Assembly (NCBI GenBank): GCA_013115145.1 | Contig: JAAPAO010000022.1 | Coordinates: 62,001 to 126,000 of the forward strand | Origin: Perkinsus chesapeaki | Lineage: Eukaryota; Perkinsozoa; Perkinsida; Perkinsidae | Length of the DNA stretch: 64,000 nucleotides | Direction of reading: 5' to 3' | Shown: positions 18,325 through 47,748 of the stretch, one piece after another | Numbering within the stretch: the first letter of the stretch is position 1 | Layout: the number at the start of each line of letters is the position of its first letter | The notes under the pieces: generated by a model | What the model was told of the DNA's origin: nothing | Seen by the model: only the letters and a program-made list of their open reading frames with translations | The model's database searches: none | Translations under genes and position numbers: made by a program

Positions 18325-18417
18325 AGAGAAGCTTCGCTCAACGCAACCGTGATATCCTTTACAGAAATATAACGTGGACAATGCGAGACCATGATAAATG
18401 ACATGTTACTGTAATGG

Positions 18418-21400
18418 TCAGTGAATGTCCAGGGCTTCCCAAGGGGCAACATCCTCGACGCCCTGAACGAACTCGCTGGTGAGGTGCCGCCAGATAGCCA
18501 GTCGCCAAAGCTGCCATGGTATCTCCTCTAGCTCTGGCGGAATCTGTATGTTGTAAGCCTGGAAAAAGGTGGCATAAACATAAAGTAGAAGGGTATATAC
18601 ATGACGCTATTCATTACGGCACATATACAGTGGAGACACAAGGCTATTAGTGAAGCAAGTGGAGGCTTAATGAGCAAGAGGAATCACACAAGGCAGAACT
18701 GCTGTATTGAGAGTGGGCGTTGTAGAAGAAGACGACTAAAGATTGAACACACCTCTGTCATCTCAGCTGCCAGCTGTCGTCCAGTGCATTGGCCTCCACC
18801 TTTTACTTGGCTTGCTAACTTCTCAAGGGAAATGAAGCTGACAGAAGTACCCTGTGAAACCTGAAAAGCAAAGGTAGAAGTAGGATGTGGCTACACCGAA
18901 GGGTACCTCTTGAGACCATACCGCAATAACATCGGCAATAAGTCGAATGAAACCATAGTCTCCAATGAAGGTCTTGATACCTTCGAGCGCCAAGGCTTCA
19001 TCCTGGCATTAGGGAAGGAGGAATTCGAGAAGACGGGACTGCCAATCACCTCGTCAATGATTCCGTTAGCATCAGTGTCCAGGAAGCTGAATGCTTGAGC
19101 AGCAGCTGCTCGTGTGGCTGGTGTGGTAGCTTCCAGATAGTCCTGAGAATGCTGCCTGGACGTGGCTCGAGCCAGCATACGTACCTCCAAGCCCTGCAGG
19201 TCCATACCTTTACCAGGGCCCAACTCCTCTTTCTCTTCCTCCTTGCCATGTTTGGTCGTGTGCTTAGTCTCCAGGAAGGACCCCCCACTGCCAGGTGAGC
19301 TGGTTCCCATTACAGCTTCGAAGCCATGGAATAGCTGCATGAACCACAACCTTCGAGACTGGCTGTCATACGCCAGAAGCCTCAGGAGACCGAGCTCATT
19401 CGCTGACACCGTGCCTGAGAGGCTCACGCCCACTGGACGCCAGTCGACGTCCCCGAGCTCACCGTCGCCATCGTGATCGAAGTATTCCTCAAGCAAAGTT
19501 CGAGTACCCACAGGGAGAGCGGCCAGCAATGTCGGGACTTCAGCCGAGTATCGAGATGCCCTTGCCAAAGCCCTCGGAGTTAGCAGTAGAGGAGCATGCC
19601 GGAGGGATGGAGGAGCTGCTGCCTCAAGACGAGACCATTGCTGCCATTCTTCGAGAGAGATCGTCCAGCTGCCATCTAGATCGATAAGGGAGAGCAACTA
19701 AAACGTTAGTACTCAGCGCAAGGCAGCGCCAGCTACCTCAAATCCCCAACGGTTGGTCGTCCACTCGGTGCCAGCCAGTTCGGTAGGAGTGAGGACACCA
19801 TCATTGTCGGTATCCAAGGTCCAGAATCTCGCCCGCATAGTAACAGCACTGAATGCTGCCGCCAGCATCGGTATAGATAGCCTAGGGCGGATACTAGGAG
19901 GGCGATAGCTACATGTAGGTCACCTATCGGTAGACCATAGGCGCCCCAGTAATATCAAAACATCTATTGGAATACCATCCTTGCCAATATCGAGAAGCGC
20001 GTCGAATGCCTGGACCAGAATCACCACAGAACAGACGCGATTCGCACCTCCTTGGAGAAGGCACCGTCTGGAGCATCAACATCTATACCATAACGAACGA
20101 ACTCCACGGTATCAATGACACCGTCGCTGTTCTTGTCCATGGACCTCAGCGAGCTTTCCACCGACACTCTAGAGCTATCCATCAGTGGCGCCAGGCTTTG
20201 CCGTGCAACAGCTACGCGCAGTAACGCAGTCGCGACCTCCTCTACAGCAAAAACACTAGGCCTCCTGTCGACAGAGCAGGTAGAGTACTGTTATCAGAGA
20301 CGAGATAGTCTTTAATAGCATCACGGGTGGCTTTGGGCAAATCCCTCAGCACTTCTCTGTACGCAGCCATCGGATCGCCAGAGCCACTGTATCGTTCAGC
20401 CAACCTGCAACAGTAATCGCATTATCGATAATACTGAGATACTGTTCAGATACTTCGATGCAAAAAGCGATGCCGCCGGTGGCATGATGTCATCCTCCGA
20501 GTGAGCTAGCATTTGCCATTCCCCTCGACCGAGGACGTCTGATGGAATGAAGGACATCAACTTGGAGTAGGCTGCCTGAGACGGAAACGGCTGAACAAAC
20601 CACACAGGAGAAGTGGCTTACACAAACCGAGGAAACAGTGGAGGTAGAGTTCCTTGAAGGACATCCAAGATCACTCCGGTCTATGCGACCGTCCTTGTTA
20701 TTGTCCAGCTCAGAGAATCTCATTTCTAGCTCGGCGGATCGTAATAGACGCAGCAAGCGGTTGGTCTCTCTAAAGGCACCCCTCGGCCATATATTCGACC
20801 AACGGAGCATCGCCTACCGGCCGTCCTTGAACGCCCGATAGAGCCGGTCAACCAGACGCCAAGATGGTTGGCCTTCATGGCTCTTATGCAGCAGGCTGAG
20901 GAGCTACAAAGGGAATATGGTGATTAGAAGAGGAATCACAGAGACAGATCACTTCGGAGGTGAAAACACCTCGCGTGCCGAGGCCTCGACCGAACTCCAG
21001 CCAAGTAGTCTCGGTCAGCCTCCCCTTAGGGAATGCCAGCTGAGCCTAGGACGCGAATTGGTAAAGCTGGCTTAGGTTGCCCTACATGAATCGGCAAGAC
21101 GACTTCAGGATACTCGAGGGGCTCCTCTGATCGAGGAGCACCAACTTCGAAGAAGGACCCCTACCAGTAACACTAACGGCAGACAGCATATTCTAGCATA
21201 CGGTAACAGAGTGCCACAATGATCTCATCCAAGAGCCCTGCTTCATTATCGATGTGTCAGCTTCAAAGGCCTTCTGCAGTAGATCACCGTAAGTGGTGTC
21301 GAATGTAGGCGTGCCATGATCCAGCCCGATGAGTAGCCGAGCCAAGACTGCCTCTTCCTCTTCTATATCACCTAGCCATCAACGCCTATAGCAAGAGGCA

Positions 21401-24400
21401 AATAAAAAGCAACCTACCGTCACCATTGATATCGAAGAACTCGAACCCTTCAGCTTGGCGGTGTTTATGTCCCTTTCCCTTGTTATGCTCCTTTTTATCT
21501 CCTTCGCCTCCTTCATTCTTCAATAGAGAGCTCAGCCTGAGGGCCAGCTCGGGTAGGCTTGCTGTTTTCAGCCTATCGCGGTGCCTGAGCTTGTCAGTCC
21601 CGTCAAGGCCCGAAGCGGCTTCCCCTACTCGAACAACTGGAAACGAGTTTCGATAGGAATGCTCCTCACGTACGCCCATTTCTGTAAAGATCTCCGCGAG
21701 GCTCCGCTAAGACCACTGGTACCGTGCTCGAGGATCTCCATAAGCTGACAACGAGAATTTTACGCGCACACTTGACTGGTAAGAGTCACCTTCTCCGAGG
21801 GGCTGCCTTCCCAACCTAGTTCCTTTGGAGACAGGACGCCATTCTTATCAGCATCAAGACTATAGAACAATGGCCCCATAGAAGCAGCGCTGAATAGGGC
21901 TGCAGTCTCAGCGAGTATCCTGAGTACAGCGGGAGATGCGCTGTCGACAGCAAAGCAGGAAGGCTGACAGCTCACCGGGAGCTTCTGAGGTTCATCCACT
22001 CGGTGATCACTTCAAGGAGGATCGTGTCGTCTTCGGAAAGCTTGTCAAAGTTCTGATGAGCCCAGGTCCTTTGAAGCCTTTGAAACTGACGTACCGCGTC
22101 GGAGAAGATCCTACTGCCTGCCAAGATAGTCTGGTCAAGCTCCAAGAATGTGCCTCGGGCTAGATCAGTCGACACAGCACCGTGGCCTGACGGCTCATAG
22201 GGCATCAACTCCTCCATGATGAAGGAGAAGTCAGACGTGAGACGAACAAGTGCGTACTCGGCCGCGTCGAGTGCACCTACGAGGTTGGATAAAATAGGAC
22301 TTGATCCTGGTGTCCGTAGTATGTAGACATGCACGCCAGTTGTTCGAAAGGGGCAGAGTTACGGAAGTGCAACAATACAGAAACTGCTGTTCGGTAGGAT
22401 AGTTCCGAATCTTGAAACACTTGCAGCGTGTAGATTTTTAATCAGCATAAGAGCGCGAGGAATCATTCAGTACTGTGTAATTGGTAGGCCACCAATGACA
22501 GCTCTCACCATCATCATTCTCGTCAAGGAATGCCACCGTCTGATGTATATCCTGCTCAGCTAGCTTTGCCAGCTCCTCCATAATCTCGACAGTAATAAAT
22601 GCAGTATCCTTCTCAAAAGTCTCCTTTCGCTCATCCACCCTACACTTAGAGCCTCATCGACCACGAAAGCATGTACCGTACTTCCTAGCCAACCACCGGA
22701 CAACTGCCGGAGTTGCGTCCTCACTGCGACCAGCTAGTCTCTGCCACTCTGTACGAGACAGTTTGCCGGACCCGTCAGCATCCAGTATCGCCAGGAACTG
22801 CCATCCCATTTCTGTAATGCACATTCCAAGACCTTACCCATCTCTTATCATCCTCGGTAGCGTTGACATCCAGCTCCTCCAAAGTGAGCTCATTATCAGC
22901 ATCCTTATCAAACTGCATGAACCGATCATGCAAAACAAGCGCTTCCACGAATCGATATATCAGGGGCACATTTCTAAAGGAGTTCATCTTCGACCGGTGG
23001 AACGGGTAAAGCGGTTACGATGAGTCCTTTGTGGCCATATGAAGCATCTCGTACCGCTGCAGCTGGGCCCCTTCAGCCCTTTCGGCCGATAGATGCTTCA
23101 GTACCTGATCGTGAACTCGTCCACCACTTCGATAGGAATAATGGAGTATGAGTGGCGGCTGATAGAATAACACGTCATCCAAGCCTGATTAGTGCCGTGT
23201 AGCATTATCATAGCTTTCTTGCCGATCAAAAGCCTCACCCTTCTCGAGAATAGTCTTTGGTACGAGCCGCTGCTAGCTCGCATAGCCTGCAGCTCTGCGG
23301 TAGACAGACTGCCATCTCCATCCAGATCCGCAAGGTAGGCAGACACTGACATATAGGGCTAAAATAACACCACTAACAACTGGTCACGGCTGGTATCGGC
23401 TACCCCAGACGGTGTTGCAATTTCCAAAAGTGACGGCGAGGGTTCCTAAGGAATTACACGACTGCTGTGCTCCAGGCCGTCTCGGCTCCTACCGTCAATT
23501 GAAGCCAGGACATGTCGAATACCTTACGTTGGCTGACATCGATATTAGCATCAAAGCCTTTCTCTAATATCTCAGAGAACTTCTCCCTATACGAGGCACC
23601 ATCTGATTTGCCATGCATCAGCCGGCCAAGGCGGCCCTCTCGAAAGCTAACTCTTCCTGAGCAATACCCTCACTCCATAGCCGAGTGTCCCGCCTACCTT
23701 TCTTCTGGGAATCGGTGGCATTAGAGCTCTCTGGAGAGGGCTCGTTCTGATCCCCAGCTGCCTCAGCTGTGGAGTTGTTCCCCGCTGACTCGCCCTGGCT
23801 TCCATCTTCACTAAGACTGATAATGTCGGGCTGGCTGAGACAGGTTTCAATCTGAATTTCGTGGCGTGTGACTCTCACTCCATAACATCCATTCTTGTTT
23901 TGCGTGGTGCCGAATTAGCGTAGACCCAGTCCTGGAGATCCTTCCGAGATACTCCGACTGCTGCCTTCGGCGGCTCACTCCGAGTTAGCTCCTCGAATAG
24001 CTGACAAGCGCCAACAGCAACCGGAGCTCGACTGCACTTCCAGACTCACTTGCTTAGCGTCATCATCCCAACCAAGCTCGTCCATCGACAGCACACCATT
24101 CCTGTTGGTGTCTGCAGTATAAAAGAAGGTGTCCATATTGAGGGCCGAGAACACCGCTGCTGCTTGCCGCAGAGCCCTAGAGGTCATCTCATTGATAAGG
24201 TACAGGAAGATACTTTTTGTTCCGAAGCTCCATCCAGCGGCTTATAACATTTAAAGGTAGCAGCTGCCTCTCTGCGTCGGAGATGAGCTCGAATAACTGA
24301 AACTCAATGGCAGCAAAACCGCTGCAACCAGCGCCATGGTGCCCACCTTTGGCTTGAAGAATTTATCAGACGCTCCGATCCGTTTGCCGACCTTCTTGAA

Positions 24401-27400
24401 CTCAGCCTCGGTGAGATCTTCAGAGATTGCTGGGCTCACTGGTGCCCCTCTGTGAGGCAGCACAGCCTCCGACACGTGACGCATGTCACTAAGAAGCCGC
24501 AGACGGGGAAACTCTCGGAAGGATAGCTCCCCTGAAGAAGAGACAGCCATGCAATACGATAACTCGCGCTGAGAAGTTGAAAATGAAAAGATGCATGTAG
24601 AGACAAAGTGGGCTGGCAAGCGGAACTCATTCCAATGACTGCAAAACCTTAAGCTCCTGATATCTGATAACTATCCCACTCGGACTAGACAAGAGCACAT
24701 ATTTCGTAGAGCAGGTATGGTGAGCCCCGAGCATACCATCGCCATCGGTGTCGATGAAGGCTTTAACGGTCTTCACTTCATCTCCAGGAAGTCCATCCAA
24801 CTGCTTCAATACAGCGGATGAGACCTTTGCCGAGTCCAAGTCGAAATCGCCATCACGTTCTGGTAACCTGGTCAAGCCACTCCATGAAGTTGTTACGTCA
24901 GCCAAGCCCTTACTTGCCAGCAAGCCAGACAGCGGCATCGGGAGCCGCGTCGTAGGAGTAGCCGGCCAAGGACATCCACTCGGACGTAGAGATAGTCGTG
25001 CTGTTGTCAACATCGAGCAGTTCAATCACCTACGTGGCCTTGAACGGCCATTAGTGTTCGGAGGAGCTCACCCAGTCAACATCCTCGGAGGAGAGGTCCA
25101 GGCCATTAAGCTCCTCATGGCTGAGGTCTTCGCTCTCGTCGTGATCCAAGTCGACGAATTTGGCGTGCAGCTGCAGCGCTTCGATGACACCATGGATGGC
25201 TTCGACTGCCCTGACGAGCACCAGCGTTCAGAGATGCCCCGAGAGCTAAAGCCCACCGATGGTCTTTGGTACAGCGGTGAAGCTCCTCGAAGGCGTCCAA
25301 GTCAATCACGCCGCCTTTTCCAGCCCCAAGGTCCTTAAAGACCTGCGAGACGAGTCCGATGAAGGAGGGGCGTGGAAGGCACACTTCAGAGGAGAACACT
25401 CTAGGAGTCGCTCCCATGGCGTCCCTTAGGTCATCGAACTCTGGCGCTGACAGGCGGTGATCGCTATTATAGTCTGCTCGGTAGCCTGACAGTGTCCTAT
25501 AGACCTGATTCCCAAATAACCGGAGTCCCAAGGCTGCAAGCGGTGACCTTAGGCTGTTGGCACTCTTCTGAGCGCATTTGGAGCAGCGCCGATGGGCTTG
25601 AGAACTAACAAAGGAGATGGTACGCTTGGCGTGGCCCTGAGCAATAGACCTCCTGCTTGGTTTCCATCACCACTCGGAAGCCTTTATGCATCATAGCGTC
25701 CAAGACCTCCATGGATTCACTCTGGCCCAACAGACGCAACAGGCCCACTTCGTCCACATTCAGAGTCCCTACCAGGATGTGTCCGACGCCTCCCTTGCCA
25801 AGCTCACCATCATCATTGGTGTCGAAGACCTCTAGGATGGCATTGCGCTCCTCTAAAGATGCTTCTTCAATTGCCTTACTGGCCGCCAGACGGAGGTCCG
25901 ATGCGCCAGCTTCCTCAACGACGCTAAAAGCACACGGTGGGCCATCCGACGGTTCGAGGTAAGGCCTACTCAAGGGCAAAAATCTTAACGGTGCCCGGGG
26001 CAGAGAAGGCGAAAGTGAGCTGTTGGAGACTGAAGCGGTCGATGTAGCTGATGCCATCGGTACCATTGATACCAATGGCACTGAACACCTGAATGCTTAA
26101 TGGGACGGGGCAATCACGGCTTGTCCATCCGTGCTACGGCACTATAGGGAATCAAAAGTCAATTTGCAGTTGAGAGCATACGGGACTAGCTGACCTCGGT
26201 GGGGCGGAGCCGGGGGAAGTCCGTGTGGAAGTCGGCGAACTCGTCCATGGTTATCCTGCCCGTCAGGTCAAAGTCCTGACTTGAAAAGAATGCCTCGCAG
26301 TTAATAGCACTGAACACTCTCAACAGCTGATTCACGCGCCTGAAAATACCGTAATGCTCGTCATCTTCGAACACTCTACCTTTCGGCCACGGCCCTCAAC
26401 CACACTCTAATAATTTCGGGAGGTATAACAGTATCGATCGAGGCCTGGCCGATAGGAGCCAATGCCGTGAAGGACTGGTAGGGGGGCTAGTTCCTTAGAA
26501 ACAGCGGGGGAATGTACCTTCTCGGTGAACGCCGCGTGGTTCGCCCTCGTCTTCGAGGAGTAGGCCAGGAACCGTCGTCGGTCCCATGGTGTGCTGAGCG
26601 ACAACCCATCAGTGTTGTAAAGGGCGCGAGGCATAAATTCATAAACGATCTCCGGGGTGGCGAGGAACCGCAGCAGGATGAGCTCATGGTCGTCCAGGGA
26701 GCCTTAATGCAAAGCCATGTCCGGCAGGGCTGTAATTCAGATACTGACCATCTCCGTTGAAGTCTAAGAGCTGGGAGACCTCCGCTTGCTGGAAGGCAGT
26801 AAGGTCCTCCAGCTCCTTCAAGACAACACCTGCGCTCCATTCGAGAGTCTCCGCTATTCTGAGGAACATCTGGCACACTAGCGCGCCTCAAGCGGCCACC
26901 TTCTGGCGAGCAGCACTGCGCTTGGTGGGGCGGCCTCGGTGTGCAGACCTGCTAGGACTTGGACCTCCGACAGCTCTAGAGACTTCGAAGAGTCCCGATC
27001 CAATGTCTTGAACACCTACAAAGGCGTCGGAGTTTACAAACTCCGAGAGAGCCGCTCACCCAGACTCTGTCCGAGTCCAGACCGATCTCATCCCAGCTGA
27101 TCTTCCCATCGCCGTTCTTGTCCATGGCATGGAAGTTGGCCTCGAGAACAAAGCTGTCGAAGATGAGATAGATCCTCCGAAGGTTCCTAGATGACCATAC
27201 GGAGTAGTAGATGAGATCATGACTCCACCTCATGTCCTTGGATGCGTAGTGAAGTTGATCAGCTACAGAAACGTCCAGCATGCCGGAGTCGTCTTCGGCA
27301 GTGAAAAGATCGAAAACCTGCCCAGGCCGGCGAGCAACACGTGACCCTAGCGGCCTCTACTTCCTCCGAGAATGCTCTCTCTGGGGCCCTTAGAGTAGTG

Positions 27401-30400
27401 CCATAATCTCTAAAGGCATCGTAGGGAATCATCGTTCCCAGCGCCAAGCTACCAATGGAATAAGGGGATGGAATCCGGGCCTCCGGAACGACCTACGAAT
27501 CAAAGACAATTCTAGGTTTGTCCTTCGTCCCACCTCCTCTGAGCCGAGTTGGATGAAGGCCTCAGGCACGCCATCCTCGTCCTCGTGCTCCTCGATAACG
27601 CCTTCCGGCAACACTTGCTCATCATCGGCAGTATCTTCACGTTGACCGTGCTTCCCGTCGGCAGCATCCTCAGGTTGACCGTGCTCCTCGTGAGAAGCAT
27701 CCTCAGGTTGACCGTGCTTCCCGTCGGAAGCATCCTCAGGTTGACCGTGCTCCTCGTGAGAAGCATCCTCAGGATGACCGTGCTCCTCGTCCTCTATAAC
27801 ACCGTCAGCTTCGGGCTCTACGGTCTTTACTAAAGGCTCTTCCAACAGGCCCGTATCGTTGTCGAGAGACATCGGCCGCCAGCTAAGCCTGGGCCTTCGA
27901 CCGTATCCGAGGAGGACCTCAGTGGCGATGAGATCGGCCATTTCAGTGCCCCCTCCAATCGCCCGAAGGATGCTGTAGTCTGCATCTGTCGGCCGACCTG
28001 ATGCACACATCACGAACTTCCACACCGTGATCTTCAAACCATTCCCAAGAGTATCCAAGGCTCTGTCGATGACTCTCATGTAGGTGGGTGGCAACTCGGT
28101 AAGCCTCTTTTGCGCCGCGGCAATGAAGGGTCCTCCGGGTATTGGGAAAGGCCCATCTTCGAACGCTTCAGTAAGCCTGATCAGTACGGGGAATCCACTG
28201 CTCAGCTGGTACTATCCAGCCCACCACAGTGCAAAGCGCTTCACCACTATAGGCGCTCTGTTGATGATAACCATTCTCTGCCACTCGTACCGAGACAGAT
28301 AACCATCGCGGTTGGTGTCAAGGTAGTGGAAGAGCTGACCAGAGAAGGCTTCAAGTGGACGCCGGGAGGATTCGAGACCCACCGCGCGCCCGGACAAGGT
28401 GCTCCAACCAATCTCATCAATAGAGAGTTCGAAGCTTCTAAAGTTGTCCAGTTGCGAGAATCTGCTCTCGAGAGCGAGCGAGTCAGAAACGAGCCGAGGG
28501 AAGTCATCCCGCTCGTCCATGGAGTCGAGCAACCTGACGCAGCCGACGGTCGAAAGTGGCAGTAGCCGAAATGGCGCACTCCCCCTTGGCAACCGTTTGG
28601 AAAATGTCATCGATCTCGTGGACCTTTATGTGCTCTGGATCAGCCTCGGTGGCGAAGAAGGAAAACGACTGGGGCAAATAGTAACAGACGGGCCGCTGTG
28701 TGAGGTGGTGATACTTTGTCTGTGAAGACGAAGGCCGGGGCTCTGATGGTATTCCCAAACTTGGTCCATTCGGTGAGGTTGACAAGCCCATCGTTGTTCT
28801 CATCCATCAAAGTATATATATCCCCCGGAGCATCCCGGAACAACTGAATAATAACTTCGGCGTGTGTAGTGGACAAGATGGACACCTTGATCAGGGCCAG
28901 CTTGGCCGGTGCTCTCATTATCATCAACCAGGCATCTAGAGCCGAGCTCAAACCCTCACGGATGGGCTCGGAGGTGTCCAAAACTACATAAGATTATTGA
29001 TGAGAAATCGGAGACCTCTTACGGCCACGAAGATGCTCCACTCCATCCTGGAGACGATGAAAGGCAGTGAAGTCGATGTCATCACCGAGTAGACCCTCTC
29101 GTACAAAGGCGCCAAAAACCACCCTGTCGTGCATGGGTGCTTCAACCTCGTAAACCTGGAACGACGAAGGATTGAACTGGTCAACACTGAAGGGGAGGGA
29201 TACCTCCTCCATAAAAGAGCGTATCTCCTCTACTTTATGAATCGTTGAGTTATCAACCCACTGCATGAGCCCACCCAGGCACTCTCCAGGGGGTATCTGA
29301 CACCTCTAGCTGTACCACTGTGGCCTGTGCCTGCTTACGAAGCCTCTCATGCCTATAATGAACTCAGCATCTGAAGGCGTCGGCTCTCGCCCCTTGAATT
29401 CGTTTGCCTCGTAACTGTCCTCATCCCGGTGGCCGCCCCTCCCTCAACGGCTTACATCTCATGTAGCGTCTGTTGTCTTAAGGCATGCGAGTAGCTCCCC
29501 AGCGACAGTCCATCGCTGCCGCCGGCGTCAAGGGAAGTTTCGTGGCTGAACAACACCATGACCAACCTTCCGTACAGCGTCTTCTTGCCTGAGCCGGAAG
29601 GTAGCAGCAACCTTGAGAGATGCTGCCCCTCCACGCCGTGTATGCGACAGGGCCGGGGACATTGGTATGACAACTCTATCTGGTGGATGTGGCGCTGGTG
29701 GACTGTAGACCAGTCGTGGAGCGAAGGGGTGTATGTTGAACAATGGGTCATAGTACGGCCTGAGGTGCGGTATCTGTGAGATGGCACGATCGGCTCACCC
29801 TGTCGGAGCCGTAGTGTTGGTACAGTTCAAGCAGTTAGTTATAACATCACTGCCATCCCTCAGTCTGTAGATGTGTCTCCTCGATGGCAGCACCCTCGGC
29901 CCTGGTTCAGCCTGGGGTGCCCCATGTGGAGGATCAAGCCTGTCAGCCGCTGCGGCTTCACTTCCAAGAGTGTTGCCAAGTTTCTCAGGCGCCAGTGTCG
30001 TTGTTGTTGTTACTTCTTCCTCTATCTCAGCGTCTGGTAGATTGTCGTTGACCTCCTCCTCAGGCTCCCCCTCCGGCAGAGTTTCATTGACATCTTCCAC
30101 CACACCATCCTCCGCTTCTCCCTTGGGAACTCCGTCATCATCCTCGGCAACTCCGTCCTCACTCGCATCCTGGACCTCACCGGCCTCATTCTCAGCCTCG
30201 GCGGCCCCGTCCTCTTCCTCAGCCACACCATCCTCAAGACCAGGGCCAAAGTCCGGCTCAGGAGGCTCTACCTCGACGACTGGGTCAAACTCATCCTCAA
30301 CTGGGAACCCATCTGACTCTATCTCAGCATCAGTAATAGGATTGAGGTCCGGTCCGAATGGTCCGACTGGCCCCTGCGATGGTGGGACGGTTTTCCTCTC

Positions 30401-31340
30401 TGTAGATGTGGGTCTGGGGGTGGTAGGAGTGGCAGTAGTCATGGGAGTTGCGGTAGTCTTAGGCTTCGTCGTCTCCTCTACTATGGTCTCTTCGTAGTCA
30501 TCAATCTTTGGCGGCTTCGGAATCGGTTTGCTAATTCCCTTAGACGCCGCCCTCTTGGTCGGCTCAGGTGTGGTGGCCTGCGGAGTGACCATCGACGAGT
30601 CCGGTAGGATATCAGGAACTATGTCATCGCTGACCACAGGATTCAGATGAGATGGCAGCCGAGCCAGGTCGCCCAAGGTGTCATCATCATCATCAAAGTT
30701 GTAGGCCAGCTCATCGTCCTTGGCCGCCGCCGGTCCGAACATCTCGTCTGGCCCTTGTTCCTCGGGAGCTCCTTCGTCCGTCTGCCCGGCGTCAAGTCCG
30801 GGCCCAAAGTCCCCCGGAGGCCCTGGATCTTCTAGGACACCGTCCTCCATCTGATCATGGTAGTCTGCGGCATCTATTTCTTCATCTGTCGGTGACTCTG
30901 CGACGCCCTCCTCGGTTTGGCCAGGATCCAAGTGGTCACCCGAACTCGCTACATCCTCAGTAGGATCGAAGTCGTATGTTCGTGAAGGGCCAATAAGTCC
31001 TTTATTGATCTGCTCCAAATCCCCTTTGTGATCATCGATATCCTCTGGTCCTTCCTGTACACCATCCTCAGACTGGCCTGGGTCGTCGAAGGTCCCCTCT
31101 TCTGGCCCTTCCGCGGTATCATCCTCAGGCCCTTCTGGTACGCCCTCCTCAGACTGGCCAGGGTCATCAAAGTCCTTCTCCTCCGGTCCTTCGTCATCCT
31201 CAGGCCCTTCTGGTACGCCCTCCTCAGACTGGCCAGGGTCATCAACGTCTCCGTGCTGAGGCCCTATGTTACCACCCATCGCAGCAACTTGTTCATCGTA
31301 TGGTAGTTCCGCCTCACCAATATGGTTGACCTGCTCATGC

Positions 31341-31374
<34 letters not shown>

Positions 31375-33292: not shown

Positions 33293-33621
33293 GTCGAATA
33301 GGATGCTACGGAATAGGTCCGCCCACCGTGGCTGCAAAGTATTTCGCAGTGAGACCAAGTGCCTACCAACAGCATTCCGTGAGGAAATACGTAGAGTGGT
33401 GAAACACTTCATTTGCTCGTCATTTCCCGAGATTGACTGTTAACTTGAACACTGGAAGTGAACCGTCTATTGTAGGTTAATAATCATACAACAGCAGCAG
33501 TAGCATTGGACAACATGCGCTGGCCCATTCGGGCAGCAACCCTCACATCGGTGATAGCTGGAAAGAAGCGGCATTGGTGATACTAATTAATATCCATCAA
33601 TGTCCGAAGGAACGCGTCATC

Positions 33622-36600: not shown

Positions 36601-39600
36601 CGAAGCTCTCCGACGGGTATTCCTACGAATGCAGTACAGCCAGCAGCACCCCAAGTATTCACCCCTTACGTGCATCGATATGCTCCATGTGTTATTCTCC
36701 CTACTCTGTGGGCCACCCTGCAGGTCCGGACTATACTCGTCGTCCTTCTCATCCCAGTCCTCCGTAACAAGTTCCTCATCCTGTGTTGCATCCCTGGCTG
36801 AGTCATCCACAGACTTCATATCTCCATCATTCATCTCCTCATGTATATCCCCCTCATCAGGCCAGCTGTCATCTCCATGCGGTCGAACATCTCGGGTAGT
36901 AGAAGTCTCCTCGGCCTCCGAAGCCTCCCCGTATCCGCCATCTTGGCCTTCCTCCTTCATTTGCTCATCATCTCGCTTCTTCCTAGAGTGCTTCCTATCA
37001 TGCTCCTTCTCCTCCTCAATAGTCTCTCCATACTTTGGCATCCTGTCCTTCCCAGTATCCTTCATGTCCATAGTGTCTCCATATTGTTCCTCGTCATGCA
37101 TATCTCTCACGGCAGTAGTAGCATCTCTATATTGGTTCCTCTCTCCATCTTCTCTCTCTATAGTCTCCCTATACTGCTCATCCTCCCCTCCATCTTCTCT
37201 CTCTATAGTCTCCCTATACCCTTCATCCTTCGACTCCTCCTCCCCCCTGTACCGTTGGTGCTCAGTTCCCTTCTGCCCGGCCCCTCCGTGTCGGTGCCCC
37301 CTATCCTTAGTGCCCCTGTACCCTTCATCCTCGTGCATTTCCCCCACCTCTTTGCTAGCGGTATCCTGATATCCGTTCCCCTGTCCTCGTTCTCTTTCTA
37401 TTGTCTCTGTATAATCTTCATGCTGCTCCGGTTCCTCCTCCTTCGTATGGTCCTTCCCTTCCCCCTTCTTCCTCATCGTCTCATATCCTCCCCCACCGCT
37501 CGCCAACGACCCCTCGTGTCCTTCAACAAGACCAACTTCTCTTCTCCCCTCCTCCGACATAACCTCCCTATGTATCTCAGTCGCCCCAATAATATCCGAT
37601 GCCTGCGAGGCCACACTTCCCTCTGGCGCCTTACCCGAGGCCATCCCGTCGACCTCCTTTGCAGCCGCTGCCTCCTCCTTGTGCTTCTTCGTCTTCTTTT
37701 TCTTTGAATGTTTCTTCTTTTTCCCCTCATGATCGAACTTTCGGACCTGCTGCATCGTCAGACCCTAAAAATAACGAATACCGACGGCGGAGCGACGCAG
37801 AGCCTCTCACCCCTCCGCCTCCGCTAAACTTGTCAGCAGTGCCGTTACCATCACCGCCTCGAGTTTGATAAACCTGCCGAGGGAAATATTCTCTGAGAAG
37901 TGCGCGAGGAGATGCAAGTATTACCGAGTCGACCTCGAGGAAGGCTGGCTCGAGTCGTTCAACCGTCGGCATCTGCAATATGCTTGTCACAGTATGGTTA
38001 CTTTTCCCCCTCACCTTTCGAACCGTCTCCAGGAAGCTGCTCCCAGCAGCGCTGGTGATGGCCGAGAAGCCATGGTGGAGGAGACCTTCATAGACCAACA
38101 TTAACTCCGCGTGATGGATGGCTCGGAGACTGAGAATCTCCTCATCGCTCAACTTGCCTACGAAAGTACCATGTTGCCATCTCAAGTAGTATCATCAAAA
38201 TTCTCAGTTTCAAAAAATTTTCCCCATAATTTTATTAAATTTTCCCCATAATTTTACTAAATTTCCCCCATAAATTTTACTAAATTTTCCCCATAATTTT
38301 ACTAAATTTTCCCCATAATTTTACTAAATTTTCCCCATAATTTTACTAAATTTTCCCCATAATTTTACTAAATTTTCCCCATAACTTTACTAAATTTTCC
38401 TCGTTGTTTTCTTAACCCCCCCTAACTGCTATCGAAACCTAACCGTCCAGTAGCCAAGGCTTCACCGCTCCAATCCCGCCGACGTCTTCTGCTCACCATC
38501 ATTGTCCAAATCCAAGGCATGACGAATAGTTGCCTTTGTCCTCTCAGATTTGATCCTTTCCATTACGACATTGAACTCCTTAACGAACTTAGATGGGCTG
38601 GAATCCTCCCGAGGGATACTACCGAGAAAGCTACCCGACATAGGCATATGATGCTCACCTCAACGCCAGCAGCTTCACAGACGCCGGCACAGTAAAGAGG
38701 TAAGAGAATCTTTGAAGGTCTTTCCTAGTAATTCCTAGTCCACCTTCACCGACCACATCCAACACCTACAGTGCAGATGAGTGGATTCACACGCTTTGCA
38801 GTCCCCACTGTGTTGAGTCTGACCATCGGGAAACTGCCGAGCCATTGGCCAAGCTCGTCCCCGGTCAGATGACCATCATTGTTCTTGTCGAAGTTAGAAA
38901 AGAAGGCATCGGTATTAACCGCCGAGAACACCGCAAGAAGCCTCTTCAACCGCCTGAGTCACGCGCCACAAAATTCTACAATAACTTCGCCAGCCAGTGC
39001 CGGCTGCTCACCTGTGCTTAACTGCGTTCATCCAAGCCTCCACCGATGCCTTCGGTATTTGGCCGTTCCAGAAGAGTGCTAGGGATTGGAAGCTCTGACA
39101 ACACATGCTAGCTCCTCTTACTTCTACTGGTAGTAGTAGTAGCTTATCATTCGATATGAGGATAGGGCATATACTGTATGTTTCTGTGCGTGCCAGCTTC
39201 GACTTCTACGACATTGCAGTGTGATTATTTTACTCTCCTCGATGCGCTTTAATTATTCCGTGGATTAGCACCTTCGGATTCTAAGCGCGGAAGAGATGCA
39301 CCAAAAATGCGCATGAAACGTCCCCAGTGGCAAAGTATTCCATCTCCTTTCTAGATACATAGCCTCCATCAACATTCACTCTACTCTCCCACTCGGAATC
39401 TTGGCTGTAATCTTCAAAGGTAATAATTGTGTGTTTTGATATTAGTCACTCGACAAACAAGTGCGAGTCTTCGAACGGGCGCGCCCATCAATCCCCCGCT
39501 TTTTCTAGTAGTTGATGAGTACCCACCATACCCATGCGGCTCACCTGCTTGGAAAAGGCACGGTGATTGGCTTGCAGTTCCGTTGCCATTTTAGCAAAGT

Positions 39601-42600
39601 CCTCCTCCGACCAATGAGAAGGGATTTCGTCCATCTTGTCCATGGCGTAGGAGGACTGTGGGAGGTACTTAGCCAATACGTGAGGCATCGACAGGACTCT
39701 TAACATGGCTATCTCATGGTGGTCAATATAACCTATGCAAGATGTAAGGCCAATAAGGCTCCTCGAAATACTCTTATAATTGCTAATATAAGATATACCA
39801 CACAATGAGCTGCTAGTCTAATAATCATAATGATGATATAATGTCGTAATTATACGACGTATTATTCATATAAGGTATATAATAACAACCAAACCACTAC
39901 ATCCTTATTATCAACATATAACCCTCTTGTGGGGAGAGTGGTATGGTATTATATATCACAAGTACTCACCGCCAAAAAGCATGTTGATGCATTTGCCAAT
40001 CAACAACTTAAACGGTAAATTTCCTTTAACCAGCAGCAGAGTAGTGTAACCTTTAATTGGTTCTACGAATATGCTACGAAAAGCTTAAGCGGTAAAAGCA
40101 GCCTTCGCCATCAGCTTACCGTCTCCATCAAAGTCCAAGAATTCTCCAATCTCAACACTCTCAAAGCCAGTGTATTCCTCCATTGATTTCATCACAGCTG
40201 CCACATACTCCTCTATAGGTCCATCAGCCTTCTGTTGTACCCTAACAACACCACCTTCCCGATTCACACGGCAATACGGCGCCCCACTTCTGTGCCAGCA
40301 TGATGGCGCTGGCTGGAGCTGCCTCCTCGCTGAAGCCTGCTAATCTTTGGAGCTCTCCCAGCGTTATAGAGTTGGAGCCGTCGAAATCGACTACTGTGAA
40401 AACCTGAAGTATCCAAGAGAGTATCTGTGTACTAGAACGCCTTCCGGAAAGAGCAGCAGTGTGCACTTCATTAAGTAGTGTAAACGTGCGAGGCGGCTTG
40501 CTCCTATTTCGGCACCAAAGCTTCCCACTGTGCACCTTAGAATTCTACAGCAGTCGCTCTGTAACAAGACTTGCCACGAAAAAGATGAGCAGTCAAGGCG
40601 CAGGGGGGAGATCCATGCGGATGAGGGCACCGCAACGGCGGTGGTTACCATTACTCACCGCTTTGTCTGATGGCTTCAAAGCTAGCTCTTGGAAAGATAT
40701 ACCTCCGTCCCTATTGGTGTCGAACTCCTTGAACCGATTATGCAAGACGAGGGAATCCAGAATTAGGCTGATGCGACGATGGTTCCTAACAGGAATGCAG
40801 AGGAGGAAGCATGCGTCAATGTGAGGAGAGAATCTCAATAGTAATGCAGAGGAGGAAGCATGCGTCAACGTGAGGAGAGAATCTCAATGGTGGGGATGAC
40901 CTACCGCCACCGTTCAGTCATATCTAGGATACGACTGATGATGAGATGTTCACAAGCAACATACCAAGCATGAGGGGGGTTGGTATTGGAGGAGCACATT
41001 ATTGAGCTATCACTACGTACTTGTCTATTCCCCCGATACAGGAATGACAATTATTTGTTATGATGCCAGCAGATACTGTACAAGTTAGCCATACAGTGTG
41101 CAATAGGCGGTGAAGTAGAATTAGACAGAGCAGTACGACAGTTGAGAGATACCTCATGTCCTTGGAGGCAGCATGAAGGACATCGCTCTCGCTGGAATCG
41201 AGATCCTCAGCGTCCTTGTCGGCAGGATATTCGACGAGGTCATATGCCTGCTCGAGAAGGCTGTCATAAAGAAAGCGAGGGAGAGTGGCTTACCGTTCTG
41301 GAGAAAACAGTGGCAGGGGCGGAGATGGACTTGCCGAGATCGGCAAAGTCATGGGATGTAACTCTTGTTGATGGAGATAGCTTCCTTAGGCTGAACTCCA
41401 AAGGCAGCCGGCTCCACTGACAAAGACAGGAAGCTGCTGCTGCTGTTAGTGTGATACTAGCGTGGTACTTAAGAGGCTATAGCCGTCTCCTGGCTAATAT
41501 ACCCGTCATCCATATAAACAGCTTATATTGCAAATGTAAAACGGTCGCGATATATTATGTACGTAGTTGAATTAGTATATTATATACTGTTATTATAAGG
41601 TAATATCAATTACTATCAGCCGAATTACCGTTCTACTGAAGAGCTATCAAGCATCAACGTGCGGGGTAAATAATCACCAAAGACAATATTTATGACTCAT
41701 CAGGGCATCATGGGGCCCGAATCAACAACGTCCACAAATGGCAATATGGTCGAAACGAACCACCGTCGTTCGCACTACGACTGTTGCGACTCCCTACTTG
41801 ATCAGATTCCTGAATAAAGGAGCCAAGTTGATGATGGCCTCCTCTATGGTGTTTCCTTCTCCTATTCTCCCCCTCAGGATTCGGTGAGTAGACCTCCCCT
41901 CCTGGAGCCTGCTGTCCTGCCTCCACCTCGGGCAAGGGCGATATAACTCCTCGGCCCTGCTGGGCAGCACTTAATGCGTTGGACGTCAAACGGGGCCGTC
42001 GACCGTAGCCGAGATAGAACTCAGTGGCAACTAGGTTATTCATCTCATTTCCGCCAGCCATCGCTCTCAATAGACCGTAGTCACCATCTGAGGGCTCACC
42101 TACGGAAGGGGACACTGACAGACTACACAGCGGAGCGCTGGAGGGCCGATATAACTGTCACGGACATTTCTAAGCTACCAAGGGGCGTGGTGGTGAAAGG
42201 GATCGAGAACGTGTCTCTGTGGTCATAAGCCCAGAAAGAATTCAAGGCCCACCTGCTCCTAGTGAGTCCAAAGCTTGCTTGATGACCGGTACGTATCTTT
42301 CCGGCATAACAGCCAGCCGATCCTTGGCCTGCGTCACGAATGGTTCCACAGAGTAAGGCAGTAGATTGTCCCCAATCATATGAGCGATCCTGAGGGGCTA
42401 CCAGTATACCACCAAATGGGCAAGCCCAAACCCACCAGAGAGCAAAGCGTCTAACAATGAGCGGCGCTCGATGAATCATCACAAGCCGTTGCCACTCGTA
42501 GCGGGACAGCACACCATCTCTGTTGGAATCAAGGTAGAAGAAGAGCTGATAGGAGGAGACTTGTGACGTGACGCCACCGCCGACATCTGAGACATTACCG

Positions 42601-45600
42601 CCTCTCCAACAGGGCCCTTCCAGCCTATGTCCTCCAAAGAGAGGTCATTATGGCGACCACCATCAAGGTCAGAGAATCTGCTCTCTAAAGTAAGCGAGTC
42701 CATCACCAACTGAACGGCAGTGTCAGCTCCTCTGGTCGATGAACTCAGCCTGGCAGGCAAGTAGTCCGAAGGTGGGCAAAGGGCGGCGGCGGTCTACCTC
42801 CCCTGCGCTATGGTGCGATAGAGCTCTTCAAAGTCCTGGACGCGAATCTCCTGTTCTTGTTCATCAGACACTAATTCGTTAAATGCCTGATAAGAGCCAT
42901 TAACCACACCGAGGGGCTATATCATCTCATGTGGTGCCCATACATATTCACTACTAGCTGTAATGTTATAATGCAGAAAACGCCAGTGTATAGTTGATGA
43001 TAGATATATTATACATTCCGGGCTTACCGAAAATTTGTGTTTTTTGAAAGGAGAATTCCCCAGGAAGGCTAATGTGGTGTTCATCGATCCTGACGACCAG
43101 TTGTTGTTATCTTATAGAACACGTAAATATATAATAAATATATATTATTAATAGGCATACTGTATTCTATATTGTAAGAGTAACATAGTAAATAGTTGAT
43201 GAAGATTATAATTACTGATACAGATGGTTAGGTGGTTATAATAATACATATCATTATTATATCTCATATATAGTGACATCTTATTATATACTTCGGGACT
43301 CCCGAGAAAAAGTGGTTTTAACTAAATTCTTCAGGAGGAGGGATATTTTAGCAACACAGGCCAAATGTTAAGTCCCTTCAAGGCCAGTGACGCCTCCCTC
43401 CTCTCTCCTCACCTCCTTATTAAATACAAAAGCTGGAGCTGCAATGGTCCGACCAAAAGTCATGAACTCATCAAATGAGATGAGACCATCGCCATTGGTG
43501 TCCAGCAAAGCGTATATCTCAGAAGGAGCTTCTCGGAACAACTGAAGGCAACCGATCTGGACCGGAATCGACCGCTATGATGATGATGCTCACCGATACT
43601 AATGTGTGCTTGTCGGGGGCGGTCAAAAGGAGGATCCAGGAGTCCAGTATAGTGGCGACTCCGGCACGGAAGGAATCAAACCGAGGAAAAACTGACATGA
43701 CCCGGGATCGACCTGGCGTCCTCAGGAGACCTACTTTCGCTGACGTGCTTGATACCGCTGCGGAGGCCCCTCATGGTCCTAATAGGAGTTATGTCGCCCT
43801 CGAACAGACCGTCCTTCACAAACCGAGCGAATGCTCTTGTGTTCGCTGTTGTAGGGTACTTGCTGTACAGCTGCAAACGGACATAGCCATCATCGCGCCG
43901 TCTCCACGTACATGCTCCATCTTCTCCCTTAACGCCTCCACTGTCGACAGAGCCGTCTTATCCACCCAGGTGAGGGCGGCCTCCAATGCAGGCTCGGGGA
44001 ACTGAACGGGGGAGCTAGATGCTGAGGGACAGATGACAGGCTCACCCGACCGATGCGGCCAACGGTGAAGTCGACCTCTTGCGGAGCTAAGACATTCTTA
44101 AACTGAACGTGATAGGGTATGTCATGGTGCTGGTGGTAGCTGACCAGCAAATCGGATGAGCCCGACAATACCGCTTTGGTGCTGACCTCTCAATCGTGTG
44201 CTGCACCACCGCCGGGCTGCTGCTGCCTGGCTGCCCCACTGTCATCGAGGAGACCGTCGTCCTCTTGTGACTGAGAAGGGCACCCAATGCAAAAGCACTG
44301 CGCCTTTCAATGGTGGCCTTACTCCGAGACTCCCGGCCAAGGAGAGTGCTGTGTGGTGGTCACCACAGAAACCCTACTGTGAGGTGGACGGCCAGCAATA
44401 CGAAATGGCGACCCCACCGCTGACGGCATCGGCAGGATCATAGCGCTCGGTGGCCTCGGGGCAGGCGGATGGAATATGATCCTTGGTTGGAAGGGATGAG
44501 GGGCAAATAAAGGAGCATAGTGGACAGCCCTAACAAGAGCAACCCGCTGCTGAACCACAGTAGCCAGCAGCACTGGCTTACCCTGTAACGTGAGTTATGA
44601 TTGGTGGGCTGAAGAGACGTTGACCAGACAGCAGTCTGTATGGCACTATAGGAGACTTCATCTCCCCCATGCCACTCGCCACACCCTTCAGCTCGCCTGC
44701 TCTCACCCTGGGGACAAACGGTGTCGGCTGATGCTCCTCTGGTTCAGCTTCTCTATGACCATCAATATTATTCGGCGACCAAGGCTGGCCAGGTATCACC
44801 GGGCTCTCCGGATGGTCCATATGCTCCTCCTCGGGATGGCCGCCTCCCTCCTCCTCAGGTACTCCCCCGATATCCTCTTTGGAGCCTTCTTCCTCCCCCT
44901 CAGGTCCTGCTGCCCCTCCCTCCATATCAGTCATGGCGTCCGGTACGACCGGATTGGTATCGCTCTTGGTGTCAGGGGACTCCTTACCAAATACAGCATC
45001 CAGCACCTTATCCTCTGGGCTCTCATCCTCCTCCTCGGAGGTCCCTGGTTCGATTCCCCCCGACGGCTCTTTATCATCAATCTCTCCCCCCGAAGGCTCC
45101 TCCCCCGCGACCGGGTTAGTGTCATCTCCAGGCGGCGACCCGAATTCCTCCTCACCCTCCTCTTCAGGTATCCCTTCATCCCCATCCAGCATGCCCATCT
45201 CCACCATGGCCGCTGGCCGCACCTCCAGCAAGCTGGTTGCGCTCTCCTTCTTGTCATCACCGTAATAAGTCTTAACTATCTCCCCCAGCAGCGCGCTCTG
45301 TATTGCTTCTCTGTCCCACGCTATCTCCGGTGGCACCAACGCCTCATGTGGGACAGCCGTTTGTGGCAGCGCCCCCAGCCCATGGCAGTAGGAGTAGAGG
45401 ACCTGCCCGACAACTGGAAGCATCACAGCTTCACGTCCTCGGCCACCTACCCGCTTGGTCGTATAAGTGACCCCACTCAGGCTGCGAACATCGCTCACTC
45501 GGACGAAGGTCTGCATGCCCGCCGAGGCGAATCTCCTTTCAAGGTCTCGAACGTCAGCCAGGACGTCGAGGTGCGGTCGAAGTCCACCACCATTGGCGTC

Positions 45601-47748
45601 GGTATAGATGGTGAAACTGACACCAGAGATCCTCGGCAGACCTTTTCCATTTCGACCAACCTGACGAAGCTGCCCGCGAAGCTGTGCGCTATGATGGTTC
45701 CTCTGGCACTTGAAGATACCTGCATATCCTCGCCAGTGACACCTAAGATAGCCGATAGCCGCCCGGAAGTGGTGATAGTAGACAGGCACTTACCATTCCT
45801 AAAACTGAGGTCCAAGTTGTCCTTGGTGACCTTCGACATGGCCTGCCGGAGGACCAAGTTTACCTGTCGACCAACAAGCCGTTAGAGGACACCAACAAGA
45901 TAAACGTAATTGCGGCCAATTCCCAGACTTATACATTAGGCATACCCTACAACGGTTAGATAAGGGAATCCTAGTAACCTGCCACGGGGAGGCTAGGACA
46001 CTGATACCGGATATCGGTAGCTCGATTCTAGTATGTTTGCCGCCGCCGTCCGACAGCTTTCCCGACAATAAGTCGCTGGGGCCATCAACGATCACCGCCG
46101 CTTACTCTATCTCTGAACTTCTGAGTGTTCTCTGCGTTGAGGATCTCTATCTCTCCCTCGACCTCCATAGGAGAGTTGTCCAGTGGGCATCCTCGGAACA
46201 CTTGAAGATCGAAGGATGCAGTCTGTCCAGCTGATGACATCAGCAAAGCCTTCGCCAAGCATCTCTGAGACATCCGAACTATCCAACCACACCTGCCATC
46301 AAATGCTGCCCACATGAAGGGCCGCGTGGGCCGCTCGAGCAGTCTCTTCATGCTGCTCTGGAGTGAGACCACCAACTGGTACGTGGAGAGGCTCCGTCTA
46401 ATGGAGAGAAATGGTGAAGTAAGAAAAGTGGTGAAGGTCACTTACCGAGAAGACCAGCTCGGCGAACAGACCATCCTTAGCAACATCGTATATCACCGTA
46501 TAGACTGGGTTAAAGCCGGCTGCAGTGAGGGCGTGTACCCTAATAAAATGGTAATTAGCTCCTCCTCCTCCCCACCATCGGCATAGCTCTACATGATATC
46601 CTTGATCTTATCCATAGAAGGATGCTGGACATCCTGCTCTAGGAGCACCGGGTAAGGGAAACGTACTTTACCGATAACAGCCTGAAAAAGACGACGGTGA
46701 TGCTTTTCGAGACAGCTTGCACTATGGTAGCTGCACCTATCATATAAGCTGCTGCCGGTCTGGTAAGCATATAAAGTAACCAGACCCAGAGGCTGAACTA
46801 TGTACGGTTACCACTGTACAACCTACACCCCCTTTAAAGCAGAAGACTGACAGCTTTTACCGCAAACATCTACAAGGTGGGACACTTTTATCATAGGATA
46901 GTGTTGCACTGTGAGTGTTAGAACAAAGAAGGAATCCTTAAAAGGGAACTCAGTCTCAGTATCGAGCAATACAACTGCACAGAGCGAACCCCTTGAGCGG
47001 CCCGAGTCGTATGAAAGGCTCATATCGACCAAATCCCTCCTCAGGCCCTACCGCAGCGGTTGTTGTTGGTCGTTGTTGTTGTGCCGCTGACATGACCAGC
47101 GTATTGGTCGACATGGCGAAGGACCCAGCTAATTCGTAGAAGTGGCTGGGCTGTAGGCTGTCCAATAGATGGGAGCACTGAGAATAACATCCTCACGTCA
47201 CTGCGCCACAAAATTAATCCTTCTAACTCCACAAGCTGATGAAGTATACACTTGAACGCTTCGCTCGGCACACGCTCCTTCCGCCGCTGTCACCACCTAA
47301 AAGAGAGGTATTGGCAATGAAGTGATCTATTTTATAATATGAAAACGAGTAGAAGAAATGTTTTACTACGAATAAAAACCCAGCGACTTATTCTACAAAC
47401 CATAGAAGTTTCCCAGTGGTACGAAAACAACAACGTCATCATCATCAATGGGAGCCACGAGCAATAGACCACTCGCCGTTGCGGTTGCTGTACCAAATGA
47501 CTTTTGGTAACAAGTAGAGTGGGAAGTGTAGACGCTGCAGAGGACTTCACTCCTCCACCTCTTCCACTTACATGCATAAGATCAACAACACCAACCCCAC
47601 CAGCGCTCATATAAGCCTCGAATGGCCGGCAAACTCGACCACCCATCGACGAGCGGCAATCAGCAGACAGAAGACCCTTTTTAGTAGCATCCACCAAGGT
47701 GGTGGTGGCTAACCCCAGCACGGAACAGCAGTAGCCTATCAATCTCAT
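33622..47748 (-). CDS. Giant secreted multi-EF-hand protein, paralog A
   Basis: Tandem paralog of gene B, 14 kb, starting at ATG 47748 with signal peptide MRLIGYCCSVLGLATTTLV and a cysteine motif ADC-x8-VCRPFEAY that aligns with B. Conserved blocks follow the same order, for example LDSLQPSHFYELAGSFA (47.1 kb), LQVFRGCPLDNSPMEVEGEI (46.2), FQPRIIFHPPAPRPP (44.4) and SRYEWQRLVMIHRAPL (42.5). EF-hand loops include DTNRDGGISFQE (40.7 kb), DFDGSNSITLGE (40.4), DKNNDGHLTGDE (38.9), DQDHDGKITVKE (36.3), DVNGDGLLTKEE (35.2), DLDRSGSIGRPE (34.9) and DTNNDGELSD (34.3). It has about five copies of the module that occurs nine times in B. A charged insert (36.8-37.75 kb) is rich in KKKK and YRETIERED-type repeats. 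Several introns are several hundred bases long and AT-rich. C-terminus shares EVPWALWRLIVWRHL with B and extends further, to TAG at 33622. Confidence 0.65.
37080..37250 (-). repeat. YRETIERED-type repeat tract in gene A
   Basis: Minus-strand translation contains GYRETIEREDG, QYRETIEREDG and further degenerate copies such as QYRDATTAV and QYGDTMDM, with near-identical DNA for the two central copies. It lies inside a long acidic and lysine-rich insert with a KKKKHSKKKKTKKHK start. Paralog B has no such insert at the matching place. Confidence 0.75.
38213..38402. repeat. 22-bp satellite in an intron of gene A
   Basis: About 8.5 copies of a 22-bp unit (TTTTACTAAATTTTCCCCATAA) stand head to tail with few substitutions. 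They lie between the exon ending near 38185 and the EF-hand exon near 38500-38650, so they are intronic. On the coding strand the array reads as A-rich with GGGG runs. Paralog B has no such array. Confidence 0.95.
40794..40891. repeat. 49-bp tandem duplication beside a splice acceptor in gene A
   Basis: Two copies of a 49-bp unit (40794-40842 and 40843-40891) differ at only a couple of positions. On the coding strand they are pyrimidine-rich and lie directly upstream of the acceptor that opens the exon coding NHRRISLILDSLVL. The duplication therefore lengthens the polypyrim­idine-like part of the intron. Confidence 0.9.

What the first reader, a model, noticed from the sequence alone, without database searches (positions are those of the whole stretch)
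18418..47748. Tandem pair of giant secreted EF-hand genes of no recognised family
Two 14-15 kb minus-strand genes lie head to tail. Each starts with a signal peptide and a matching cysteine motif, then a non-EF region, an acidic tract and repeated EF-hand modules, and ends with the same WRL-IWRHL block. At least twenty calcium-binding-like loops occur in B. I know of no named secreted protein with this architecture, so this is the best candidate in the window for an undescribed system, perhaps an extracellular or vesicular calcium buffer or adhesive coat.
Basis: partly seen in the sequence, partly recalled or inferred. Interest (0 to 1): 0.78.

Follow-up and report, generated by a model that had tools for sequence, protein, structure and literature searches.

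The report
Twin giant secreted calcium-binding genes, Perkinsus
Two neighbouring giant genes of a mollusc parasite code for very large, apparently secreted proteins built from many repeated calcium-binding units; close relatives were found only in other Perkinsus species, and their role is unknown.

Summary
The window is Perkinsus chesapeaki. Two intron-rich minus-strand genes lie 290 bp apart: A (47748-33583, ~2.5 kaa) and B (33292-18418, ~3.4 kaa). They are collinear tandem paralogues: hydrophobic N-terminal leader, matching five-cysteine motif, alpha/beta region without a Pfam match, acidic tract, a long EF-hand array and a C-terminal WRL-x-x-WRHL block. Strict EF loops number 9 in A and 17 in B (chance about 0.01-0.06). 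The array grew by duplication of a five/six-exon block with fixed intron phases. The pair is therefore older than these species. Calcium-ligand positions 1 and 12 are nearly invariant between orthologues while the surrounding array is 50-73% identical, so calcium binding looks selected. Pieces of B find nothing else in this genome. Public models call A '26S proteasome subunit 8', in P. chesapeaki through fusion with the neighbouring PSMD8 gene. Most likely it is a soluble secretory-pathway or extracellular calcium-binding matrix protein. Calcium binding is well supported by inference; the matrix role and location are guesses. No expression or biochemical data were available.

The parts
33583..47748 (-). 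Gene A, 57 predicted exons, 2510 aa; start ATG at 47748. One exon missed (44529-44413, found, homologous to B 29755-29648); small exons 47296-46672 are unreliable (P0002 reads this part otherwise)
   Evidence: orthologues P0006 and P0005
18418..33292 (-). Gene B, 70 predicted exons, 3442 aa; stop at 18418. Exon 28334-28291 is cut short and exons near 32815-32570, among others, are missing in the model
   Evidence: orthologue P0001, 45% identity, 85% of the query covered
47572..47748 (-). A: hydrophobic leader and first two cysteines of the motif
33134..33292 (-). B: hydrophobic leader and first two cysteines of the motif
33019..33087 (-). B: third and fourth cysteines of the motif; the fifth follows in the next exon (32972)
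45451..46681 (-). A: N-terminal alpha/beta region without Pfam match above cut-off
31831..32815 (-). B: N-terminal alpha/beta region, modelled as two ferredoxin-like domains (low confidence, pLDDT 56)
44582..45402 (-). A: exon holding the acidic tract
29799..31567 (-). B: 1.8-kb exon holding the acidic, repeat-rich tract
38015..43541 (-). A: first EF-hand array (exon blocks a-b-c-d-e-f)
36717..37764 (-). A: charged insert with short repeats (YRETIEREDG type; P. marinus and P. olseni A carry HYSETVEE repeats)
34269..36561 (-). A: second EF-hand array
19050..28983 (-). B: EF-hand array, about nine exon blocks by eye, five with the exact phase pattern
27534..28176 (-). B: predicted exon inside the array with an acidic 33-bp tandem repeat (HGQPEDASHEE)
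33850..33939 (-). A: C-terminal LWRLIVWRHL block
18418..18558 (-). B: C-terminal LWRLAIWRHL block and stop

Best explanation
A and B are an ancient pair of soluble giant proteins, found so far only in Perkinsus, that enter the secretory pathway and bind many calcium ions. The cysteine-bearing N-terminal domain and the alpha/beta region would fold and perhaps anchor or assemble the protein; the acidic tract gives low-affinity, high-capacity binding; the array of calmodulin-like EF-hand blocks binds calcium site by site and, in a calcium-rich lumen or in estuarine water, would be saturated and stiffened or compacted. The most likely use is a calcium-loaded matrix protein of a secretory compartment or of the cell exterior (storage or structure rather than signalling). 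Shown by computation: gene structure, tandem paralogy, EF-hand identity, conservation of ligands, orthologues. Inferred: secretion, solubility, real calcium binding. Guessed: matrix/storage role and location.
For: Pfam EF-hand matches down to 5.3e-36 in B pieces and 9.4e-59 in the P. marinus B orthologue. Strict loops 9/17/11/11/20 in five family members against shuffle means of 0.055 or less. Ligand test: positions 1 and 12 identical in 18 of 18 (A vs P. marinus), 18 of 18 (A vs P. olseni), 22 of 22 (P. marinus A vs A), 21 of 22 (P. marinus A vs P. olseni), 39 of 39 and 34 of 34 (B pair, both directions); all four ligand positions 1, 3, 5, 12: 33/36, 34/36, 41/44, 41/44, 69/79, 59/68; non-ligand loop positions only 23/45, 28/45, 23/55, 33/55, 34/98, 29/85; rest of array 50-73%. 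Leader (best 10-residue hydropathy 1.87-2.55 in four N-termini) plus conserved five-Cys motif. Outside the leader no segment reached a Kyte-Doolittle mean of 1.6 over 19 residues in A, its two orthologues or B; P. marinus B has two, both inside the EF region. Excess of acidic over basic residues: 441 vs 275 in A, 663 vs 314 in B. Orthologues in P. marinus and P. olseni.
Against: No signal-peptide predictor was available, and of the four leaders only that of P. marinus A reaches a 19-residue hydropathy mean of 1.6 (others 1.41-1.48). P. marinus B as annotated has no clear leader and lacks the Cys motif (its first ~50 residues look like another reading frame; inference). Many EF hands are degenerate, so capacity is less than the number of motifs suggests. 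No expression, localisation or binding data. The structure model of the C-terminal array failed (pLDDT 40). No known ER-retention ending (B ends LDIH, A ends LMDIN), so a resident ER store is not favoured.
Confidence: 0.5

Rival explanations
1. Extracellular adhesive or wall-coat protein: the EF arrays act as calcium-rigidified rods that cross-link the cell coat or bind host or substrate through the N-terminal domain.
For: Leader, Cys motif, giant repeat architecture; calcium of estuarine water (millimolar, recalled) would keep EF-hands loaded.
Against: No known adhesion domain matched above cut-off in Pfam apart from EF-hand-type models; no membrane segment at the C-terminus; nothing tests adhesion.
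Confidence: 0.2
2. Matrix protein of a regulated secretory organelle (as in trichocysts or dense-core granules) that swells or condenses with calcium on release.
For: Acidic, probably soluble, EF-hand-rich, leader present; alveolates have such organelles (recalled).
Against: No granule-matrix family showed in the Pfam scans; organelle contents were not tested.
Confidence: 0.15
3. A cytosolic calcium sensor or scaffold, the leader being a misprediction.
For: Blocks align with calmodulin at E = 2e-4; leaders are only moderately hydrophobic; the long EF array P0008 begins directly with EF-hands.
Against: Conserved five-Cys motif directly after the leader in A of three species and in B of P. chesapeaki.
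Confidence: 0.1
4. Prediction artefact: several small genes or a decayed locus joined by the gene model.
For: My models rest on no transcripts; the public P. chesapeaki model fuses PSMD8, a chromodomain gene, A and part of B and skips A's acidic tract.
Against: Separate public models in P. marinus and P. olseni have the same order and similar extent; repeating intron phases: 5 exact blocks in B, reached in 0 of 20,000 exon-order shuffles (2 in A, reached in 16 of 20,000); no internal stops.
Confidence: 0.05

Closest known systems
Calmodulin-like four-EF-hand domains
   Same: One block (EF, EF, degenerate EF, EF) aligns along calmodulin residues 15-145, E = 2e-4
   Different: Many blocks in one giant leader-bearing chain with additional EF pairs, an acidic tract and an unrelated N-terminus
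CREC family (reticulocalbin, calumenin, Cab45; recalled)
   Same: Secretory-pathway proteins with several EF-hands and acidic composition
   Different: Recalled as about 300-350 aa with HDEL-like endings; here 2.4-3.7 kaa, endings LDIH / LMDIN / LMGVN / SLHID, extra N-terminal domains
Calsequestrin (recalled)
   Same: Acidic, high-capacity lumenal calcium binding is the proposed way of working
   Different: Calsequestrin has thioredoxin-like folds and no EF-hands; here EF-hands and no such Pfam match
SPARC extracellular calcium module (PF10591)
   Same: PF10591 matches above its cut-off of 22 bits in two B pieces (24.7 and 36.1), P0001 (35.6) and P0006 (38.4)
   Different: The best stretches lie on EF-hands; no follistatin/Kazal-type domain matched; P0005 shows no PF10591 match at 0.01
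Large EF-hand arrays P0007 / P0008 (unnamed sources)
   Same: Many EF-hands in a long chain; E = 1.5e-15 and 3.8e-13
   Different: 25% and 28% identity over 31-32% of the queried A region; near-regular EF arrays without the Cys motif, acidic tract or C-terminal block (by eye)

Membership tests
EF-hand superfamily | 12-residue loop with ligands at 1, 3, 5, 12 | tested here: met
EF-hand superfamily | Measured calcium binding | not testable with these tools
   only ligand conservation was tested
CREC (reticulocalbin/calumenin) | HDEL/KDEL-like C-terminal retention signal | tested here: not met
   C-termini LDIH, LMDIN, LMGVN, SLHID (P0005's end looks mis-annotated)
CREC (reticulocalbin/calumenin) | About 300-350 aa, six EF-hands only (recalled) | tested here: not met
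   lengths 2428-3671 aa in five members
SPARC | Extracellular calcium domain | tested here: inconclusive
   PF10591 above cut-off in 4 of 7 sequences scanned (two of four B pieces, P0001 and P0006, not P0005), best stretches on EF-hands
SPARC | Follistatin/Kazal-like Cys-rich domain | tested here: not met
   no Pfam family above cut-off on the Cys-bearing N-terminus
Calsequestrin | Thioredoxin-like domains | tested here: not met
   no such Pfam match in the four B pieces or in P0001, P0005, P0006
Secreted protein | Cleavable signal peptide | tested here: inconclusive
   moderately hydrophobic leaders by hydropathy and eye; no signal-peptide program available
Ferredoxin-like (beta-alpha-beta-beta-alpha-beta) domains in the N-terminus | Fold match of residues 92-320 of the model | tested here: inconclusive
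Ciliate/dinoflagellate granule-matrix proteins | Sequence family membership | not tested
   no dedicated search was made

The most novel reading that the evidence does not exclude
Perkinsus evolved its own calcium-loaded matrix system: two giant secreted proteins, grown by exon-block duplication of a calmodulin-like domain into long arrays next to an acidic polyelectrolyte, that fill a Perkinsus-specific secretory compartment or coat, a lineage-specific answer to calsequestrin or trichocyst matrix with no counterpart outside the genus.
Probability: 0.25. Interest if true: 0.62.

Novelty: new variant of a known kind. Interest (0 to 1): 0.42.

Why it matters
EF-hands are known best in small cytosolic sensors. 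A conserved tandem pair of giant leader-bearing EF-hand proteins, confined as far as found to one genus of mollusc parasites, points to an unstudied extracellular or lumenal calcium system. It also corrects public annotation: the P. chesapeaki and P. olseni records name these proteins '26S proteasome non-ATPase regulatory subunit 8'. The species-variable acidic repeats might serve as strain markers (suggestion only).

Tried and rejected
18S-based identification of the species: four identical requests did not complete; dropped because a public protein identical in 3466 of 3469 residues named the species. PF13499 over the own genome gave 69 matches at E <= 0.001, none on the window's contig, 150 of 181 candidates scored; I did not count this against EF-hands here, because the exons are short and only the best candidates are scored. 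Considered and rejected: pseudogene (no internal stop; strong constraint); recent duplication (P. chesapeaki A-B 27-44% in the three best blastp segments, in-register A-A orthologue segments 51-64%); further paralogues in the genome (three protein searches with pieces of B, 13, 7 and 4 candidates, all hits in contig 135; other pieces of B, and A itself, were not searched). Distant relatives: three protein searches scored only the 2305, 7996 and 7986 candidates sharing most words, in length windows set by the query; so 'Perkinsus only' is limited to that sensitivity. The N-terminus alone was not searched against the large protein set. No B orthologue of P. olseni was found; this does not show absence. 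Structure model of the C-terminal array: useless (pLDDT 40), not used for fold search. Foldseek on the N-terminal model: 5 chains at E <= 0.001, all with TM-scores of 0.36 or less, taken as a common fold only. The N-terminal profile has one weak PDB sequence match (UDP-glucose 4-epimerase, E 0.33), taken as chance. Papers: searches were read as listings; of PMC2868825 I saw passages only. No title or abstract start listed there deals with these genes; supplements were not searchable.
Full report
What the sequence is. The window lies at 62001-126000 of contig 135 of a 35.4-Mb, 884-contig genome. A public protein of Perkinsus chesapeaki (P0002) is covered by exact 8-mers of the window's minus-strand frames in 475 of 476 residues before gene A and 3466 of 3469 from the start of A; the plus-strand frames cover 8 of 3945. 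The orthologues of other species (P0001, P0005, P0006) are covered in 236 of 3671, 656 of 2428 and 561 of 2443 residues. The organism is therefore P. chesapeaki. The public record is named '26S proteasome non-ATPase regulatory subunit 8, partial': it joins PSMD8 (pieces at 52286-48994; Pfam PF10075), a chromodomain piece (48646-48216; PF00385), gene A without its acidic tract and the first part of gene B. My inference is that the acceptor upstream of A, perhaps a spliced-leader acceptor (some P. marinus ESTs carry a spliced leader; PMC2868825, abstract passage), was read as an ordinary splice site.

Gene models. A small dynamic-programming gene finder, trained on the window's long frames and on the blocks shared between the two copies, converged on GT-AG introns with median 53 nt in A and 46 nt in B. 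A runs 47748-33583 (57 exons, 2510 aa), B 33292-18418 (70 exons, 3442 aa), 290 bp apart, without internal stops. Known faults: one exon of A missed (44529-44413), a B exon cut short at 28334-28291, B exons near 32.8-32.6 kb missed, several tiny A exons near 47 kb doubtful (compare). Where P0002 and my model differ I trust P0002 for the N-termini.

The observation. The two genes are collinear. Each begins with a hydrophobic leader and a five-cysteine motif with spacing 9/28/12-13/2 (B, P. marinus A and P. olseni A; P. chesapeaki A through P0002; not in the annotated P. marinus B), continues with an alpha/beta region, an acidic tract and an EF-hand array, and ends with the WRL-x-x-WRHL block. 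Strict EF loops: A 9, B 17, P. marinus A 11, P. olseni A 11, P. marinus B 20; shuffled means 0.005-0.055, maximum 1 in 200 shuffles each. Pfam EF-hand families match spliced B pieces down to 5.3e-36 and the orthologues down to 9.4e-59; my spliced A was not scanned whole, its orthologues were. The 310-residue N-terminus of B matches no Pfam family at 0.01; among five family N-termini the only two matches listed, at E 0.1 and 0.42, are far from convincing.

How it is built. The array consists of exons whose start and end phases repeat as 0>2, 2>0, 0>2, 2>1, 1>0, often preceded by a 0>0 exon. The exact five-exon pattern occurs 5 times in B and 2 times in A; among 20,000 shuffles of exon order, 0 reached 5 in B (highest 4) and 16 reached 2 in A. 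Other blocks deviate through fused or mispredicted exons. Within a block, two EF-hands, one degenerate hand and a further EF-hand split by the e/f intron align along calmodulin residues 15-145 (E = 2e-4); the a and b exons hold a further pair, the b hand being degenerate (my reading).

Constraint. In loops chosen by the strict pattern in one species, positions 1 and 12 are identical in the orthologue in 18 of 18, 18 of 18, 22 of 22, 21 of 22, 39 of 39 and 34 of 34 cases (A vs P. marinus A, A vs P. olseni A, P. marinus A vs A, P. marinus A vs P. olseni A, and the two directions of the B pair), while non-ligand loop positions are identical in 23/45, 28/45, 23/55, 33/55, 34/98 and 29/85, and the rest of the array in 50-73%. 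The choice of loops fixes the reference letters but not the orthologue's. The one miss is near the apparently mis-annotated end of P0005. The forward and reverse directions are not independent. I read this as selection for calcium binding.

Relatives. P. marinus PMAR010074 (2443 aa) and a P. olseni protein (2428 aa) are orthologues of A; P. marinus PMAR010075 (3671 aa) is the orthologue of B. P. chesapeaki A-B similarity (27-44% in the three best segments) is lower than A-A (51-64%, in-register segments) or B-B (44-72%), so the duplication precedes these species. The P. olseni record is also called '26S proteasome subunit 8', which fits the same neighbourhood (inference). In the own genome, pieces of B found only A and B. 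Outside Perkinsus only generic EF-hand proteins appeared (P0003, P0004, P0007, P0008). The searches are limited by shared words and length windows.

Function. The leaders are moderately hydrophobic: best 10-residue means 1.91 (A), 2.55 (P. marinus A), 2.37 (P. olseni A), 1.87 (B); only P. marinus A reaches 1.6 over 19 residues. Outside the leader no segment reaches 1.6 over 19 residues in A, its two orthologues or B; P. marinus B has two such segments inside the EF region. No ER-retention ending is seen. A soluble, calcium-loaded protein of the secretory lumen or the exterior fits best; storage matrix, coat and granule matrix cannot be separated with sequence alone. The library searches showed no paper on these genes: 'Perkinsus' with 'EF-hand' gave 18 papers (listing only), the two locus names gave 0, Perkinsus with secretome and calcium gave 5 (listing only).

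Verdict. A real, conserved, previously uncharacterised gene pair; a new architecture made of known parts; function open.

Noticed in passing
52286-48994 and 48646-48216 (-): PSMD8 gene and a chromodomain-like gene directly upstream of A; the public P. chesapeaki model fuses them with A and part of B under a proteasome name.
   Followed up: yes
16447-18405 (-): A 653-aa uninterrupted frame just downstream of B in an otherwise intron-dense strand, no Pfam match at 0.1; a 453-aa piece has two distant relatives in the genome (contigs 1 and 35, 32% and 28% identity).
   Followed up: partly
13958-13305 and 12265-11618 (-): Tandem pair of related frames (33% identity, E 1e-41) without Pfam match; smaller related pieces at 12738-12363 and 10657-10293.
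   Followed up: partly
58254-63837 (+): Mon2-like trafficking gene: DCB domain and Mon2_C.
   Followed up: no
38215-38400: 22-bp A/T-rich tandem repeat, 8.4 copies, 96% matches, in the predicted 339-nt intron of A between exons ending 38497 and starting 38157.
   Followed up: no
27616-27791, 30138-30224, 31040-31249: Acidic coding tandem repeats (33, 27 and 75 bp) in B; P. marinus B carries different, longer acidic repeats: variable regions.
   Followed up: partly
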